Source: an uncultured Roseobacter sp.
GTDB lineage: Bacteria > Pseudomonadota > Alphaproteobacteria > Rhodobacterales > Rhodobacteraceae
DNA length: 64,000 nt
Direction of reading: 5' to 3'
Assembly: GCA_947488305.1 (NCBI GenBank)
Contig: CANKZM010000009.1
Location: forward strand, 1 to 64,000
Positions within the stretch are counted from its first letter, which is position 1. Each line of letters opens with the position of its first letter. Below the pieces are notes generated by a model that did not search any database, was not told the DNA's origin, and saw only the letters and a program-made list of their open reading frames with translations. The translations under genes and the position numbers were made by a program. Shown here in pieces: positions 51,477 through 58,907 of the stretch.

Positions 51477-53270
51477 TCAATTGCTTGGGCTATACCAGAT
51501 GGGTGAGCCCCAAGCGCGCTCTTGGATCGTTGCTTGCACCTCTTCCAGCAACGGTAAGCCATTGCGCACCGCGTCATAGGTCGACCATCGCGGCGTCGGG
51601 ATTTCGATGGCACGGGCGTAATAGAAGGCGCTTTCGCCGGGTTTGAAATCCGTGTCAGTCCAGCTACCGATGAGAGTGGCGGCACCTATGTCGTTCGTGA
51701 AGAGCGCTGTTTCCAGATCGACCGTATTGCCAACAGCAGGCAGTTTACCTGTCGCCGGATCAATCTGACGATCCCCGGACCAAACGACATCAACTATTTT
51801 TTCGTTCGTATCGCCGTACTCATCGACCCATCCCTTGATGATCTGGATACGGTCGAGATTTGCACCCATAGCGTCCTTTTCGGCGTAGACCGTAAAGACA
51901 GGCGCTGTCACAATCGGTGCCAGATTGCCGCCCATATGCGTGCCAAGCAAGTATCCTTCCTCTGCCATGGATACCGGATCTTCGGTAGCCGTCAGATCGG
52001 CGCCTCCGAACATCCGAACTTTGATGCGGGGGCCAGATGTGGCAAAAGTTTCGCGTCTTTTCATGGCGTCAAAGATGGCTGCGCGCGTGTTTTCAATGGC
52101 CCAGACACCCGCGATCGACCCGATGGAGAGATCCTTTCCATCTATCCAACCCAGAACATCGCCCGTGCGACGCCGTTCCAGTGAGCCGTCTTCAGGACCA
52201 TGCGCCCCTATGAACTCATCCTCTGCTACTGCAGACATCAGACCGTTGTGATTGTCCGTGCCGCCGATAAATCCATATTTGAAGGGGTTGACGCCAAGTT
52301 CTTGCTCCATCGCGATGCCACGGGACAAACCACCCCGCACGAAATCTCGCTCGTGAAAAATACGGCCCGAATTTTTCTGGATTGAATCCGCATTCTCGAA
52401 GTTGGCAAACTCGTCCGCTGCCCAGAACTTGCGGTGGACTTCCGAATTCCCCTTAACCTGCATCATCTCGATCAGCGGTTCGAAATGCTGTCGCATCTGC
52501 GCGTAGTCGAGGTCTACCGGGTCGCCGAAACTGTCCGTATCCGGGAACATGCGCCCCTTGGATGCATTCGAGTTATGCGGGATGGCGAGAAGATGGCGGC
52601 CTTCGGCTTCCTGTTCCTTCATCCACTCCCACAGCTTCTCCTCCTGATTGATTTCAATGTAGCTGGGCACAGAGTTTGGCACATTGTGATCGCGGAACAG
52701 CACGTTGCGATGCAGGTTCGCGCCATTTGGCGCAGCCGACCACTCGAACCCAATGATCGCCGTAAATTTCCCCGGTTCGTTCGCCTCTTCAGCCGCATCA
52801 ATAATGATCTGCCATGCACTTTTGGATGTTGCCGGTCCTGCATAGAAGGGCGGGTGCTGCGGCGTTGCGGAGCGGTTGGATGAAATAACGTATTTGAAGA
52901 ACCATTGCTGGCGCTGTTCGAGATCGGTCATCGAACGCAGCTCTTCGAGCTCTTCATTGTCATGGCCCGGCGCGTCTTCGAAAATGGTCGAATACATCTC
53001 GCCGATGTATTCCGCATGGTCGGATACGGCAGCGAAATCCAGTGGCCTGCGATGCTGCATCACGGTGCCATCTGGCATCGTCACAGGTTCGCCTTTTGCG
53101 AAGGCCAGACTGTCCGCCGGCATCAATCGCGTGCCCCCGATATAGGCGTCCAGAGACAAGGCCGTATGCATATGTGTCTCTCCGAAATACGCATTGCGGA
53201 GCGGGTTTGGCTCGGCATATGCCGCCAACGGCATCGCGAGTAATGCGAGGGTTGCAGAAATGCGCTTCAT
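51477..53270 (-). CDS. DUF3604 protein A
   Basis: 597 residues from ATG at 53270; the frame extends further upstream, but the family N terminus (RISATLALLAMPLAAYA signal, then NPLRNAYFGETHMHTALSLD) starts here. DUF3604 proteins have a PHP-like metal site: GETHMHTALS, AVSDHAEYIG and GTDNHNGL supply candidate His/Asp ligands. They are probably periplasmic metal-dependent hydrolases of unknown substrate. It shares most motifs with the gene at 53450 (for example NLHRNVLFRD, and IQIIKGWV with NLDRIQ). Confidence 0.9.
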   Translation of the reverse strand: MKRISATLALLAMPLAAYAEPNPLRNAYFGETHMHTALSLDAYIGGTRLMPADSLAFAKGEPVTMPDGTVMQHRRPLDFAAVSDHAEYIGEMYSTIFEDAPGHDNEELEELRSMTDLEQRQQWFFKYVISSNRSATPQHPPFYAGPATSKSAWQIIIDAAEEANEPGKFTAIIGFEWSAAPNGANLHRNVLFRDHNVPNSVPSYIEINQEEKLWEWMKEQEAEGRHLLAIPHNSNASKGRMFPDTDSFGDPVDLDYAQMRQHFEPLIEMMQVKGNSEVHRKFWAADEFANFENADSIQKNSGRIFHERDFVRGGLSRGIAMEQELGVNPFKYGFIGGTDNHNGLMSAVAEDEFIGAHGPEDGSLERRRTGDVLGWIDGKDLSIGSIAGVWAIENTRAAIFDAMKRRETFATSGPRIKVRMFGGADLTATEDPVSMAEEGYLLGTHMGGNLAPIVTAPVFTVYAEKDAMGANLDRIQIIKGWVDEYGDTNEKIVDVVWSGDRQIDPATGKLPAVGNTVDLETALFTNDIGAATLIGSWTDTDFKPGESAFYYARAIEIPTPRWSTYDAVRNGLPLLEEVQATIQERAWGSPIWYSPSN

Positions 53271-53449
53271 GGTCAGTGACCTCTTGTTAGACGTAAATCG
53301 AAAGCCGCGTTCTTTGTGATCCGCTGGCTGACCCTGAGTGGGGTTGTGAGACTTGTCGGAATGTCCGGTTGTTATTGAGCCTGGGTTCGCCGTTTCAAAC
53401 TCCTTGGCCAACCACCGGTCCCAGAACTCAAGTCTTGATTTTTGCATCT

Positions 53450-55384
53450 TCATTGCTCCGGTGAAAACCAAATCGGCGAAGTATAGGCACGCTCCTGAGT
53501 GATCATTTTTACATCATCCGCCATTTCAATGCCAAAGCGAACGGCATCATAGGCGGTCCAGCGGGGCGTGGGGATTTCGATGACACGTGCATAGTAGAAT
53601 GCGTGCTGCTTTGGATCGAAGTCGGGATCTGTCCAAACGGCACCAAGCTCGGCACGGCCTATGTCATTGGTCCATGACGGAATTGACAGATCAACTGTAT
53701 TGCCAACCGGTGGTAGCTTTCCGTCTTGGCCCGGTTGTCGGTCGCCGGCCCACGCCACGTCATAGACCTGCTCTTGTGTTTCACCCGTTTCAGTCTCGAC
53801 CCATCCCTTGATGATCTGAATGCGGTCGAGATTTGCGCCAATCGGATCGCGTAGTGCATAAACAAGGAAAGAGGGGGCTGCCCCATCTTCCGCGGCAAAA
53901 AGATCACCCCCCATGGGAACCCCTTTGCTGTATCCAATGCGTGCAAGATCGCGATGTTTGATGTCCTCCGCATCAAACGTGCCGCCAAAGAAACGAACCG
54001 TAATCCTCGGGCCGGTGGTCGAATATACTTCCCGCCGTTCCAAAGCATCAAAGATGCCTGCTCTGGTGTTCTCGGTGGCCCAGACCGCAGTTGGCCCGGG
54101 CGTCGCATATTGCCACCCCTTGTAAGAGATGCCGAGTTTGACATTTCCCTTCGCAACAGCACTTGCGCGTGTCGCCGAAGGCTCCATCCATGTGAACGCC
54201 CCAAAAAAATTGTTGTCATCCTGTGTGGTCAGACCCGTATGAATATCAGAGCCGCCCACGAACCCTAGTTTGAACGGGTTCACACCTTCTTCGGCTTCGA
54301 ATTTGATGCCCGACTTCAGGATTTCCCGCGCATATTCCTGTGGGATCATTTCGGGGGTTTTGGCAGCCGAGACATCAAGGTTGGCCCAGTCCCAGCTTTC
54401 ATAATCGGCAAATTCATCCGTGGGAGAGAGCAGGGGATGCGCCTCGCTGTCGCCTTTGGTTTGCTGTATTTCCAGCAGCCGTTCCCAGTTCTGACGGGTT
54501 TTTAGGTATTCGGTGTCAAAGGCTTCGCCATCGCGGAAGGTATCGTTCAGTGCGAACATGCGGCCGTTTGACAGGTTGGGGTTGTGTGGAATGGCAAGGA
54601 CATCGCCGCCGGTTGTATCTTCGTAGTTTTGCATCCACTTCCAAAGATCCCGAGGGTCGGTGCTGCCTGCTGGTGGAGATGCAAGAAAGGGCACAACCTG
54701 CAAGGCGCGCTCCGGGCCGTCGCGGAAAAGGACGTTGCGATGCAGATTGTCACCAGCTTCCAGTGACGTCCATTCATAGGCAATGATTGCCGTGAAAACA
54801 TGGGGTTCGTTGAATTGCTCGGCTGCGGCCACCAGATCGCGCCAGGTATTGTCGTATCCCGGGCTGCCGGGTTGATAGAGCAAAGCTTCGCTTAACGTAC
54901 CTTGGCTGAATTTCGCGATGAGCTCGATGGAGGCATTTTTTGCATCCTCTCCGCCCTTGGCAAATGCCTCGTGAAAACGCTTACCATCCGGGTCAGCCAT
55001 GATGTTGGGCGCGCCGCGTTTGATGTCAGTAATCACACCCATGCCATCGGTGTGTTCGGTTAGCATGTAAAAATCAAACGGCCTAGGCAGTTTGACAGGC
55101 TGCCCTGTGTTCGAAAGCACCTGCTCGCCGCGCGCAAAGCGGTACATGTCTCTTGGCATCAGCGTTGTGCCGCCGCCTCCGGCATCTGCCGATAGAGCGG
55201 AGTGCACATGCGTATCGCCAAACAGCACTTTTTCGGGGAAAGCGCGCTCCGCATTGGGGGAATAGGGCCGGCCTTTCAATGCCTCCGAGACACCGTCCCC
55301 GGTTAAGGCTCCATCATCCTGGGCCGTCGCAGCGAAACTCGACGCAAAAAACAATGCGGCACAGAAAAAGTAATGGTTCGACAT
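53450..55384 (-). CDS. DUF3604 protein B
   Basis: 644 residues from ATG at 55384 (MSNHYFFCAALFFASSFAAT signal). Metal-site-like motifs are GDTHVHSALSADAGGGGT, MLTEHTDGMG and GGSDIHTGLT. It is a tandem paralogue of the DUF3604 gene downstream, about 47 residues longer. First gene of the operon; 180 bases separate the two paralogues. The paired copies may act on two related substrates or as a heterodimer. Confidence 0.9.
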   Translation of the reverse strand: MSNHYFFCAALFFASSFAATAQDDGALTGDGVSEALKGRPYSPNAERAFPEKVLFGDTHVHSALSADAGGGGTTLMPRDMYRFARGEQVLSNTGQPVKLPRPFDFYMLTEHTDGMGVITDIKRGAPNIMADPDGKRFHEAFAKGGEDAKNASIELIAKFSQGTLSEALLYQPGSPGYDNTWRDLVAAAEQFNEPHVFTAIIAYEWTSLEAGDNLHRNVLFRDGPERALQVVPFLASPPAGSTDPRDLWKWMQNYEDTTGGDVLAIPHNPNLSNGRMFALNDTFRDGEAFDTEYLKTRQNWERLLEIQQTKGDSEAHPLLSPTDEFADYESWDWANLDVSAAKTPEMIPQEYAREILKSGIKFEAEEGVNPFKLGFVGGSDIHTGLTTQDDNNFFGAFTWMEPSATRASAVAKGNVKLGISYKGWQYATPGPTAVWATENTRAGIFDALERREVYSTTGPRITVRFFGGTFDAEDIKHRDLARIGYSKGVPMGGDLFAAEDGAAPSFLVYALRDPIGANLDRIQIIKGWVETETGETQEQVYDVAWAGDRQPGQDGKLPPVGNTVDLSIPSWTNDIGRAELGAVWTDPDFDPKQHAFYYARVIEIPTPRWTAYDAVRFGIEMADDVKMITQERAYTSPIWFSPEQ

Positions 55385-55821
55385 TGGTGACACTCCTATT
55401 GGGGGACGCGCAATCTGATAGTAGCGCCGATCATATCCTTTGGAACACGGCCTTCATCGGAAAAGTCGCGTTTGCAACTGACTTGAAATTGGACGGGTAG
55501 ACCGCTGACCGCGACCGTGCGCGTGGGCATCAAAGTCGCGACGCCGATCCCCGAGCGCTCCAATCGTGATCAGACGCTGCAAGCTCGAAGCAGATTGGCG
55601 TTGCTCCGCGTGTGTCGAACTATAACCCAATTTACTCAGCAGGAAGCTAAGTACACTAAGGGTACGTCCAGTAGTTTGGATTTTCATAAGATTCCAAAGC
55701 AACGGAAAAAGAGAGTTGGTGCGAGAAGGCTAAATCAAAAGTTGTCAAACGAATTGCCCATTTGGGCATATTCGCCTAACTTTCTGATACTTTTTCCCTG
55801 TCACGCCGGTGTTTGTCAGAA
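55385..55821. other. Divergent promoter region
   Basis: About 440 bases between the divergent DUF3604 and Crp/Fnr genes. I looked for an FNR-type palindrome (TTGAT-N4-ATCAA) and found none that was convincing. Confidence 0.35.
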
Positions 55822-56505: not shown

Positions 56506-57324
56506 CACCAGAAGTGCTTAGGCGTAGGTACGTCAGAATTGGCTTTTGCAGGCAGCTCGTCCCGAAAACAGGGAAGGGGCGAGAAGCTTCGAACATAGCT
56601 GCGTTTTGGTGCGACTGGGGGTCCTCATCACTGGGGGCAGTTGTACCGTCTACACGGCTTCAAATTTCCCTCATCTTTCACAGTCGACCTGGCAGTCAGA
56701 GGGAAACGATAGGTATTATGAGCATTCCAAAGAACCTCTTCATTGTTCGCGCGCGGGTGCATCAATTTGCGCCGAGAGCAGCGGTGCCGTGCTCGACGCC
56801 GGAATTTCGGTCATGCGACTTGCAGCCTCAACCACTCCGAGCTCTTTTCCGCTTTTGGTTGCGACTATTTCAGAGGCGGCTCACAGGGTCCCGAAACGCA
56901 TTCCAGCCAAAAAACTCCGCTAATTCGACAAATGGTTCAGGATGATTCGAAAAATCTGTGGAAAACTGGCAATCGTCCGGTTTCATGACCCCCAAGTTTG
57001 ATCGCTTGGCGCATCACACGCGTGATTAGTGCTTTGTGAATGGGCCGCCAAAAAATCCGGTAACCCGTTTTCGCATCGCATATTTGCCAGAGCGGCAGAC
57101 GTGGAAACCTGCTGTAAAAACATGCATTCGCTCGGTCGCATATCTTTTTTGCACAATTTATGCGAGAATAGCGGTCCTAAACCCAAGTCCATTTTGCCTG
57201 CGGATCGCTTCGATATTTTGGTATTTTGCCTGAATCGATCCACCAAGACATCGCAAGAAAACATTTCGCGCCGTCATCCATAGGTAATTTGAACTCACAT
57301 TTTTTTATTTAGGGAGGCAATATT
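56506..57324. other. Long gap before the protease gene
   Basis: About 820 bases. Several plus-strand frames of 60-140 codons (for example 56514-56945) are not coding-like. The last 60 bases before 57325 are AT-rich and end in a good ribosome binding site (GGGAGG). No RNA gene found. Confidence 0.35.
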
Positions 57325-58626
57325 ATGCCAAAAGCACCAAGCAAAAAACAAGTGACCGAAGCCATTGAAGCATTGGATACGGTTCGTCGGAGCTGGCTGC
57401 GCAGACCCGGGGTAACGGCTGTTGATGTTGGCTTCAAAATCAGCGGCAAAAAGATGACTGATGAGTTGGCAGTACGTGTGCATGTTTCCAGAAAACTGCC
57501 ATCTACAGAGATCTCCAAGGCTGAAGTGTTCAATGAGAGCGGCAAAAAGAACAACACAGTCGGTAATTTTCCGGTGGATGTAATTGAAGCCCAATACGGC
57601 CCGTCCGATAGCGCCGTCCAGCAACCCCAAGCGTTGGACGATATGGACGAAGAAGCAATTGCTGCTCTCGAACGCACCAGCACATACGACCCTTTGATCG
57701 GCGGTATCAGTTGCGGCAACCCGCGCGTGACCGCGGGCACACTGGGTGCAATCGTTTATGATCGACAGCGATGCAAGCCAATGATCCTGTCAAACTGGCA
57801 CGTGCTTGCGGGCGCCTCTGCCGCCGCTGTCGGCGAGGACATCCTACAGCCCGGGCGCGTGGATGGCGGGACCGAGGTCGTGGCGTCGCTGACCAGAATG
57901 AAACTAGACTCGCGCATGGATGCAGCCGTTGCCACATTGAACGGTGCGCGCAGTTCAAGTCGTGACATTCTGGGACTTGGAACGATCAGTGGGATTGATA
58001 CCCCGACATTGGGTATGAATGTCATCAAGTCAGGGCGCACCACTGGCATTACCCGTGGCGTCGTTGACGGGGTTAGCCTGAGCGTCTCCATAAACTACGG
58101 AGACCCGGGTGTTGTTGCCTTTTCAAACCAGATCCGTATCGTGCCGCGCCCGCCTTGGCCCGCGGTTGACTACGAGGTGAGCATGGGCGGTGACAGTGGT
58201 AGCGTTTGGCTTCGTGAAAGCAACAATCGCGCCATCGGACTGCACTTTGCGGGTGAAACAGACCCCTTGCCCTCTTCGGAAAACGCGATCTGCAGCCCGA
58301 TCGGTCCGATTGCCACTGAGCTCAATTTCTCGTTCACTCCGGTATTGTGTCCGGTCGCACCGGTGCGGCCCATCTTCGACATTTGCAGACGCTATCCCTG
58401 GATCTGTCGTCGCTTCGTTCGCAACCCATTCCATGGTTTTGGATTTCAAGACGCGGACAGCTTTGGAACGGGCGACGACGAAGCCCGGATGATGGATGAA
58501 CTTCGGCAATATCTTGACAATTCTTCGGATGGTGAACGTGACTGTGGATGCGGTTGCAAATCAGGCGGCGGAAATGAACAGATCATGTTGGCGATCCTTG
58601 CCGCCGTGTTGTCCAACAAGCACTAA
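57325..58626 (+). CDS. Trypsin-fold serine protease with N-terminal alpha/beta domain
   Basis: 433 residues, with a strong GGGAGG ribosome binding site. The catalytic triad is readable: His159 in LSNWHVLAG, Asp199 in RMDAAVATL and Ser291 in MGGDSGSVWL. The N-terminal part (residues 8-95) is a separate domain with TVRRSWLRRPGVTAVDVGFK, DELAVRVHVSRKLP and NFPVDVIEAQYG. The C terminus is Cys-rich (DCGCGCKSGGG). No signal peptide is seen, so it is cytoplasmic or uses another export route. The next gene encodes a protein resembling the N-terminal domain alone, so they probably form a system. Confidence 0.8.
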   Translation: MPKAPSKKQVTEAIEALDTVRRSWLRRPGVTAVDVGFKISGKKMTDELAVRVHVSRKLPSTEISKAEVFNESGKKNNTVGNFPVDVIEAQYGPSDSAVQQPQALDDMDEEAIAALERTSTYDPLIGGISCGNPRVTAGTLGAIVYDRQRCKPMILSNWHVLAGASAAAVGEDILQPGRVDGGTEVVASLTRMKLDSRMDAAVATLNGARSSSRDILGLGTISGIDTPTLGMNVIKSGRTTGITRGVVDGVSLSVSINYGDPGVVAFSNQIRIVPRPPWPAVDYEVSMGGDSGSVWLRESNNRAIGLHFAGETDPLPSSENAICSPIGPIATELNFSFTPVLCPVAPVRPIFDICRRYPWICRRFVRNPFHGFGFQDADSFGTGDDEARMMDELRQYLDNSSDGERDCGCGCKSGGGNEQIMLAILAAVLSNKH

Positions 58627-58640
58627 GTAAGGAGCAAATA

Positions 58641-58907
58641 GTGACAAACCTGGATCCTGAGAATGTTCGCATGGCGCAGGTTGCGTTGGACAAGGTCGCG
58701 CGTGTTTGGACGTCTTTCCCCGGCGTTATCTCTGTCGAGGTGGCGCGGCGATGGAAAGACGGAGCGCCTGGCGATGAACTTGGGATCCGGATCACGGTCG
58801 AGGACACGGCTTGCGCGCGTGACGAGGCAGGAAATTCACTTTTCCCGCAACAATTGGAAGGCACGCCGGTGGACATTGTTAAGGGCGGGCAACCTTCACT
58901 TGAATGA
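58641..58907 (+). CDS. Stand-alone homologue of the protease N-terminal domain
   Basis: 88 residues from GTG at 58641, with AAGGAG 8 bases upstream, 14 bases after the protease stop. It parallels residues about 19-95 of the protease: KVARVWTSFPGVISVEVA against TVRRSWLRRPGVTAVDV, then DELGIRITVED against DELAVRVHVSR, and TPVDIVKGGQPS against FPVDVIEAQYGPS. A separate copy of a protease pro-domain is known from I9-type inhibitors. This one may inhibit, fold or target the protease in trans. Function is inference. Confidence 0.72.
   Translation: MTNLDPENVRMAQVALDKVARVWTSFPGVISVEVARRWKDGAPGDELGIRITVEDTACARDEAGNSLFPQQLEGTPVDIVKGGQPSLE

What the first reader, a model, noticed from the sequence alone, without database searches (positions are those of the whole stretch)
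57325..58907. Serine protease paired with a stand-alone copy of its own N-terminal domain
The 433-aa protein has a readable His159/Asp199/Ser291 triad and a separate N-terminal alpha/beta domain. Fourteen bases downstream, an 88-aa gene encodes a protein aligning with that domain alone (shared PGV-x-x-V, DEL-x-[IV]R[IV]-x-V and PVD[IV][IV] positions). This arrangement suggests a protease plus in-trans inhibitor, chaperone or decoy, comparable in logic to I9 pro-peptide inhibitors, but with an unrelated-looking domain. Neither protein has a signal peptide, so the target may be intracellular. I do not know of a described system of this kind.
Basis: partly seen in the sequence, partly recalled or inferred. 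Interest (0 to 1): 0.75.

Follow-up and report, generated by a model that had tools for sequence, protein, structure and literature searches.

The report
Bacterial NAL1-type protease with mini partner
A bacterial relative of the rice leaf-size protease NAL1 sits next to a tiny gene that makes a separate copy of the protease's own first domain, and this pairing recurs in distant bacteria, which suggests a dedicated but so far unnamed control partner for the protease.

Summary
The 433-aa ORF (57325-58626) has a serine-protease triad (His159/Asp199/Ser291). Fourteen bases downstream, an 88-aa ORF (58641-58907) is homologous to its N-terminal domain (E=2e-6; same pair in Tateyamaria E=1e-14). The domain is not unknown: it is the N-terminal domain of NARROW LEAF 1 (NAL1), a plant serine protease with solved structures (profile E=1e-7). 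The catalytic domain is of alpha-lytic/streptogrisin type. In the window's family 7 of 295 genomes have the protease, 3 of them with the small gene. Elsewhere the pair recurs (Pseudomonadota, Actinomycetota): 39 of 62 distinct NAL1-type protease loci examined have the stand-alone gene nearby. In a fresh whole-genome sample 11 of 12 stand-alone copies lay beside such a protease. Stand-alones keep the domain core but mostly lose two residues nearly invariant in fused copies (Lys57: 48 of 49 versus 11 of 37; Asp85: 48 of 49 versus 6 of 37), so they are specialised partners, probably with more than one origin. Best reading: the small protein binds and regulates its protease in trans. Inhibition, folding help and oligomer capping cannot be told apart here, and direct binding is not shown. 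No description of this module turned up in the paper listings seen.

The parts
57325..58626 (+). NAL1-type serine protease, 433 aa
   Evidence: ORF; Pfam Nal1_C 5.9e-5, Trypsin_2 0.0024, NAL1_N 0.021, all below the curated cut-offs; Foldseek best match rice NAL1 7y77_A E=4.4e-14 on a low-confidence model
57311..57317 (+). Shine-Dalgarno-like AGGGAGG before the protease ATG
   Evidence: sequence
57325..57600 (+). N-terminal NAL1_N-like domain of the protease (residues 1-92)
   Evidence: domain profile (which contains it) matches here in the own genome; profile A7 matches PDB 8hau and other NAL1 chains, E=1e-7
57688..58344 (+). Catalytic chymotrypsin-fold domain (residues 122-340), alpha-lytic/streptogrisin type
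   Evidence: profile A3: NAL1 4.5e-18, alpha-lytic protease 5.6e-4; hhalign with streptogrisin-type domains prob 97.1
57799..57801 (+). Catalytic His159 codon (CAC)
57919..57921 (+). Catalytic Asp199 codon (GAT)
58195..58197 (+). Catalytic Ser291 codon (AGT) in GGDSGS
58345..58623 (+). C-terminal tail with CGCGC and a hydrophobic end, poorly conserved
   Evidence: alignment; mostly low pLDDT
58629..58634 (+). Shine-Dalgarno-like AAGGAG of the small gene
   Evidence: sequence
58641..58907 (+). Stand-alone NAL1_N-domain protein, 88 aa (GTG start)
   Evidence: AF2 mean pLDDT 80.0, H6-24 E29-39 E42-53 H56-59 E75-81; Foldseek NAL1 8pmm_A prob 0.97, TMq 0.61

Best explanation
The two genes are a two-gene module: a NAL1-type serine protease (NAL1_N domain plus alpha-lytic-type catalytic domain; in the window without a visible signal peptide, so probably cytosolic) and a small protein that is a free-standing NAL1_N domain. 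Shown: homology of the small protein to the protease's first domain, recurrent adjacency in distant bacteria, correlated divergence, purifying selection on the small gene. Inferred: the small protein binds its own protease and sets its activity in trans, most simply as an inhibitor or regulatory subunit acting through the NAL1_N site or the NAL1_N sheet, as propeptide-like proteins do for other proteases. The substrate is unknown.
For: Genome-wide searches that ignore position: of 11 stand-alone hits (open frame up to 150 aa; window not counted) lie within about 1.2 kb of a protease copy (misses G645, G996; G1173 and G1151 look like near-copies). In the fresh sample (369 genomes; the known G1025 not counted), 10 of 12 by that rule, 11 of 12 once one search showed a protease beside G1680; the twelfth lies on a 3.1-kb contig. 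Distinct protease loci with a stand-alone nearby: 19 of 34 in the first set, 18 of 22 in the fresh set, 2 of 6 further plasmid loci, 39 of 62 in all; five of these stand-alones are counted only through. Small-protein distances track those of the fused domain (r=0.51) and of the catalytic domain (r=0.48), Mantel p=0.0005, n=18 pairs. Stop-start 4-nt overlap (ATGA or GTGA) in 5 of 9 junctions examined, which suggests coupled translation. No other neighbour gene recurs widely. Fold of the small protein: NAL1 (prob 0.97), and the alpha-lytic pro region (2pro_A, prob 0.92), which is a foldase for a protease of the same catalytic type.
Against: No binding or activity data, and no complex could be predicted. 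All Foldseek E-values for the 88-aa model exceed 0.001, and type III secretion ring and ribosomal proteins score about alike. NAL1_N versus alpha-lytic pro regions is not significant by hhalign (prob 0.3, E 0.22). Lys57 and Asp85, near invariant in fused domains, are mostly lost in stand-alones. In several pairs of the fresh set the small protein has a signal- or lipoprotein-like start (9 of 16 frames with a strongly hydrophobic stretch, 8 if L142, which has no usual start codon before it, is left out), while 1 of 19 proteases does, so the two may not share a compartment there. 23 of 62 protease loci lack a detected partner (2 of these, L148 and L150, are cut by a contig end).
Confidence: 0.5

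Rival explanations
1. Assembly or folding partner: the small protein caps or joins an oligomer through NAL1_N-NAL1_N contacts, or helps the catalytic domain fold, rather than inhibiting it.
For: Rice NAL1 depositions: of 7 sequences deposited in a single entry, 5 list six chains and 2 list three, and titles speak of 'open' and 'close' forms; the alpha-lytic pro region is a foldase that builds a joint beta-sheet with a protease hairpin (PMC2829044, passages); the corresponding stretch aligns here.
Against: Oligomer state of the bacterial proteins is unknown; 23 of 62 loci have a protease without a detected small gene; pro-region homology is not seen in sequence.
Confidence: 0.2
2. Effector-immunity or toxin-antidote pair: the protease is a delivered or self-toxic enzyme and the small protein protects the producer, in some lineages as a periplasmic lipoprotein.
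For: Signal- or lipobox-like starts on small proteins next to signal-less proteases in several fresh-set loci; patchy distribution (about 1-6% of genomes); family members fused to a DNA/RNA non-specific endonuclease.
Against: No delivery gene recurs nearby; no PADLOC match; small gene lies upstream in 6 of 19 first-set pairs; no signal peptide visible in the window's proteins.
Confidence: 0.13
3. The small protein is a substrate or an adaptor that brings another protein to the protease by pairing with the fused domain.
For: Stand-alones keep the core but change positions that are near constant in fused domains; no third gene recurs next door.
Against: No candidate client; nothing in the data separates adaptor from inhibitor.
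Confidence: 0.12
4. Local duplication debris without a role.
For: On the trees the window's small protein lies among fused domains of its own subfamily, so a local duplication is likely at some point.
Against: Purifying selection; 25 stand-alones from several groups form one side of a branch (SH-aLRT 96, quick tree); recurrent adjacency.
Confidence: 0.05

Closest known systems
Plant NARROW LEAF 1 (NAL1) serine protease (Pfam NAL1_N PF25608, Nal1_C PF25819; PDB 7y77, 8has-8hau, 8pme-8pn2)
   Same: Same two-part architecture; best profile and fold match for the protease and best Foldseek probability for the small protein
   Different: Rice NAL1 degrades a TOPLESS-related corepressor, and in the maize protein a C-terminal EAR-like motif is needed to bind its target (PMC12915138, passages); nothing seen here names a stand-alone partner gene in plants. 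Bacterial scores are below the Pfam cut-offs
Alpha-lytic protease / streptogrisins (MEROPS S1E, recalled) with pro region PF02983
   Same: Catalytic domain (hhalign prob 97.1); small protein's model resembles the pro region (2pro_A prob 0.92)
   Different: No signal peptide visible and no PF02983 match; no sequence-level link of the N-domains; cleavage of the N-domain not known
SUB1-ProM, stand-alone subtilisin propeptide-like inhibitor (PMC6993865, abstract)
   Same: Stand-alone homologue of a protease's N-terminal domain, encoded beside protease genes; there a potent inhibitor
   Different: Different protease clan and domain; inhibition not tested here

Membership tests
NAL1 family | N-terminal NAL1_N domain | tested here: met
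   Profile A7 versus NAL1 chains E=1e-7; Pfam PF25608 itself only 0.021 (15 bits, cut-off 27) for the protease and no hit for the small protein
NAL1 family | Pfam curated cut-offs for NAL1_N and Nal1_C | tested here: not met
   15 and 22.8 bits against 27 and 26.1; hence NAL1-type, not a Pfam member
NAL1 family | Chymotrypsin-fold catalytic domain with His-Asp-Ser | tested here: met
NAL1 family | EAR-like motif binding TOPLESS corepressors | not tested
   plant feature
NAL1 family | Hexameric assembly | not testable with these tools
   only chain counts of NAL1 entries seen
Alpha-lytic / streptogrisin (S1E) | S1E-type catalytic domain | tested here: met
   hhalign prob 97.1, E 6.7e-11, single comparison of 31 with 6 sequences; alpha-lytic protease next after NAL1 in the PDB profile search. 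Other S1 subfamilies were not compared by hhalign
Alpha-lytic / streptogrisin (S1E) | Secreted, with PF02983 pro region | tested here: not met
   no PF02983 hit; hhalign with pro regions prob 0.3; no signal peptide by inspection
Propeptide-like inhibitors (I9 type / SUB1-ProM logic) | Stand-alone homologue of the protease's own N-terminal domain next to its gene | tested here: met
Propeptide-like inhibitors (I9 type / SUB1-ProM logic) | I9 family domain | tested here: not met
   no Pfam family for the small protein at E up to 5; best Foldseek probability is NAL1
Propeptide-like inhibitors (I9 type / SUB1-ProM logic) | Inhibits the neighbouring protease | not testable with these tools
   needs an assay
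Known anti-phage defence systems | Match to a PADLOC model | tested here: not met
   no match for either protein
Effector-immunity pair | Delivery or secretion genes, toxicity | tested here: inconclusive
   no recurrent delivery gene near; toxicity not testable

The most novel reading that the evidence does not exclude
NAL1_N is the permanently attached counterpart of an alpha-lytic-type pro region, and bacteria have more than once freed a copy of it as a separate gene that inhibits or folds the protease in trans: a new family of protease-regulating proteins spread over several groups of bacteria, in cytosolic and in lipoprotein form, which would predict a similar regulatory surface on the crop-yield protease NAL1.
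Probability: 0.27. Interest if true: 0.82.

Novelty: new variant of a known kind. Interest (0 to 1): 0.6.

Why it matters
It gives the plant protease NAL1, called plant-specific in a 2026 paper (PMC12915138, passages), a set of bacterial relatives with the same two-domain build, and it names a small partner protein whose binding and effect can be tested in a test tube. If the partner controls the protease, the role of the NAL1_N domain, not explained in the passages seen here, becomes directly testable, also for plant NAL1. It would add a new domain to the list of stand-alone pro-domain-like protease regulators.

Tried and rejected
Three viral-contig scans gave no relative. The phage collection gave three records, a large uncultured phage (E=4e-15) and two of one archaeal virus (2e-7); their neighbourhoods were not read. 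tblastn of small proteins against plasmids: none for the Tateyamaria one, three weak records for the Kiloniellaceae one.

NAL1_N as a sequence homologue of the alpha-lytic pro region: not supported (one search had wrong frames for 4 of 6 loci and is void). The protease AF2 model is poor (mean pLDDT 54.5, five sequences); its matches are used only as support. The second-look library was not available.

A third conserved gene was looked for and not found; the other clusters are antisense shadows of the protease, a few common-looking families in at most 3 loci, or shared gene order of close relatives.

Dropped rows: L041 (G996) and L042 (G1022) as probable spurious frames; L047_N and L012_N from the alignments; L014 and L083 as copies of L049 and L099; L160 and L161 as copies of L012; L164 as a copy of L097. 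L158 (G1667, E=6.8e-4) reads as a transport protein and is a false hit; L040 and L155 carry the domain and a trypsin-like part that my catalytic profile missed and are not in the locus counts; L035 and L096 have no trypsin-like part. In one search the L032 row was off-frame; it was redone. An 81-aa gene beside the R. leguminosarum protease (L162:4828-5073) looks similar by eye but is not found by either profile and is not counted; the one beside the Clostridiaceae protease is not similar.

Full report
What is there. The window encodes a 433-aa serine protease (57325-58626) and, 14 nt later on the same strand, an 88-aa protein (58641-58907) with its own ribosome-binding sequence. The protease has three parts: an N-terminal alpha/beta domain, a chymotrypsin-fold domain with His159, Asp199 and Ser291, and a weakly conserved tail with CGCGC. 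The small protein aligns with the N-terminal domain only (E=2e-6, Tateyamaria pair: E=1e-14). Neighbours on both sides belong to other families: two DUF3604 genes and a Crp-type regulator upstream; a GNAT enzyme, an FAD oxidoreductase and an ABC ATPase downstream. The consensus scan finds no more promoters or terminators than shuffles do.

What the domains are. Pfam gives only sub-threshold hits to Nal1_C, Trypsin_2 and NAL1_N for the protease and none for the small protein. Profiles settle it: the protease profile finds rice NARROW LEAF 1 chains at E=4.5e-18 and, next, alpha-lytic protease at 5.6e-4; a 23-row domain profile finds NAL1 at 1e-7. Two other stand-alones hit Pfam NAL1_N directly at 1.6e-5 and 2.7e-5, still below the cut-off. 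AF2 gives the 88-aa protein helix-strand-strand-short helix-strand at mean pLDDT 80, a similar order as in the protease model (low confidence). Foldseek's highest probability among the rows shown is NAL1 (8pmm_A 0.97); the pro region of alpha-lytic protease reaches 0.92 (2pro_A), but a type III secretion protein ranks first by E-value and no E-value is below 0.001. The catalytic domains match streptogrisin-type domains by hhalign at 97.1%, whereas NAL1_N domains and alpha-lytic pro regions show no sequence link.

How widespread is the pair. In the window's family 7 of 295 genomes have the protease (own genome included), and 3 of these 7 carry the small gene (window, G240 = Tateyamaria, G029). 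G029's protease frame is interrupted by a stop. Domain searches hit 8 of 385 genomes of the class, 5 of 398 of the phylum, 15 of 296 of the phylum of the Acidimicrobiia locus, Actinomycetota, and 22 of 369 of the class of the Comamonadaceae genome (Gammaproteobacteria in GTDB, recalled; at least one of the 22 is a false hit). The first two include the own genome. These searches do not look at position. In some searches there are, besides the window, 11 stand-alone hits with a frame of at most 150 aa; 9 sit within about 1.2 kb of a protease copy (misses G645 and G996, the latter probably spurious; a 234-aa frame in G1186, not counted, also shows no protease nearby). I then used as a fresh test: 10 of 12 new stand-alones sat beside a protease hit, and one search found a protease beside an eleventh; the twelfth is on a 3.1-kb contig.

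Evolution. On domain trees stand-alones cluster more than shuffled labels (9 changes against 17.3 by chance; 7 against 28.7; 0 of 500 shuffles as low in either). One side of a branch holds 25 stand-alones from several groups (SH-aLRT 96, quick tree), while the window, Tateyamaria and Kiloniellaceae ones fall among fused domains of their own subfamily; well-supported branches force at least two changes of the label, so more than one origin is likely, but short sequences and long branches leave many forks open. Distances of small proteins correlate with those of their proteases, and a small protein is closer to its own protease's domain than expected (mean rank 4.4 of 18, 9.5 expected), as for a module inherited together; this does not prove contact.

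What differs. In 49 fused domains Gly36 (48), Lys57 (48), Asp85 (48) and Lys/Arg38 (46) are near constant; in 37 stand-alones Lys57 is kept in 11 and Asp85 in 6, although core Val30 (36) and Val54 (28) persist. The window's small protein has Thr at the Lys57 place and keeps the Asp. These counts are not corrected for relatedness. So stand-alones are not mere copies; the fused-only residues may hold the domain to the catalytic unit (inference).

How it may work. The best-supported reading is a dedicated regulator in trans. The alpha-lytic system is a precedent for a domain of roughly similar fold acting on a protease of the same catalytic type, where the pro region speeds folding and pairs its sheet with a protease hairpin (PMC2829044, passages), and SUB1-ProM is a precedent for a stand-alone gene beside protease genes whose product inhibits one of them (PMC6993865, abstract). 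Against a single simple model: in the fresh set 9 of 16 small-protein frames start with a strongly hydrophobic, signal- or lipoprotein-like segment (in L142 no usual start codon precedes it, so 8), with stop-start overlaps supporting that start in 5 of 9 junctions, while 1 of 19 proteases, L147, has one. There an effector-immunity or surface role is possible. Signal peptides were judged from hydrophobicity and inspection, not by a dedicated predictor.

Novelty. Nine paper searches were run; most returned capped lists. The listed titles on NAL1 are plant papers, the rest unrelated or on other propeptides; none is on a bacterial NAL1-type protease or a stand-alone NAL1_N partner. That is absence from the listings of an open-licence library under those terms only. 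Pfam and PDB show that the domain and protease types are known; the pair, as a module, I have not seen described. Score: a solid, testable and fairly surprising module with unproven mechanism.

Noticed in passing
L134:4543-4830, L136, L138, L140, L143, L152: Stand-alone domains with signal- or lipobox-like N-termini, most starting in a 4-nt overlap with the stop codon of a signal-less protease; possible compartment mismatch.
   Followed up: partly
L035:3613-5277 (-) and L096:4792-6816 (+): NAL1_N domain fused to about 450 aa that is not trypsin-like, sharing an EQGHRW motif (perhaps a metallopeptidase; no other Pfam match).
   Followed up: partly
L165:1345-3647 and L166:1286-3621 (Rhizobium plasmids): Both Rhizobium protease/stand-alone pairs follow a radical SAM gene and a gene annotated as HEXXH putative peptide modification protein, as in peptide-modification clusters.
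   Followed up: no
L017:7690-9391: In Comamonadaceae a RimK-like ATP-grasp gene and an unassigned gene lie between the protease and the convergent stand-alone domain; the protease tail is Lys/His-rich and ends in CKGC.
   Followed up: partly
L011, L012, L159 (Tsukamurella, Rhizobium, Streptomyces plasmids): NAL1-type protease in one protein with a DNA/RNA non-specific endonuclease (Endonuclease_NS E=1.1e-43 in L011; annotation in the others), without a detected stand-alone partner.
   Followed up: partly
L046:3806-5185 (G029): Protease frame interrupted by a stop while the adjacent small gene is open.
   Followed up: no
window 58540-58560: Cys-rich DCGCGCK stretch near the protease C-terminus; the Tateyamaria homologue has GGCSCGG, function unknown.
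   Followed up: no
window 51477-55393: Two tandem DUF3604 genes (E=6e-206 and 2e-225) next to a PpiC-type and a Phenol_MetA_deg gene.
   Followed up: no
HE681887.1 10499-10990 (Alphaspiravirus yamagawaense): Archaeal virus gene annotated as putative serine protease matches the protease's first 182 residues (E=2e-7).
   Followed up: no
L148:5109-6026 and L149:2642-3571: A homologous ORF of about 300 aa follows both proteases; in L149 a stand-alone domain lies just beyond it, in L148 the contig ends there.
   Followed up: partly
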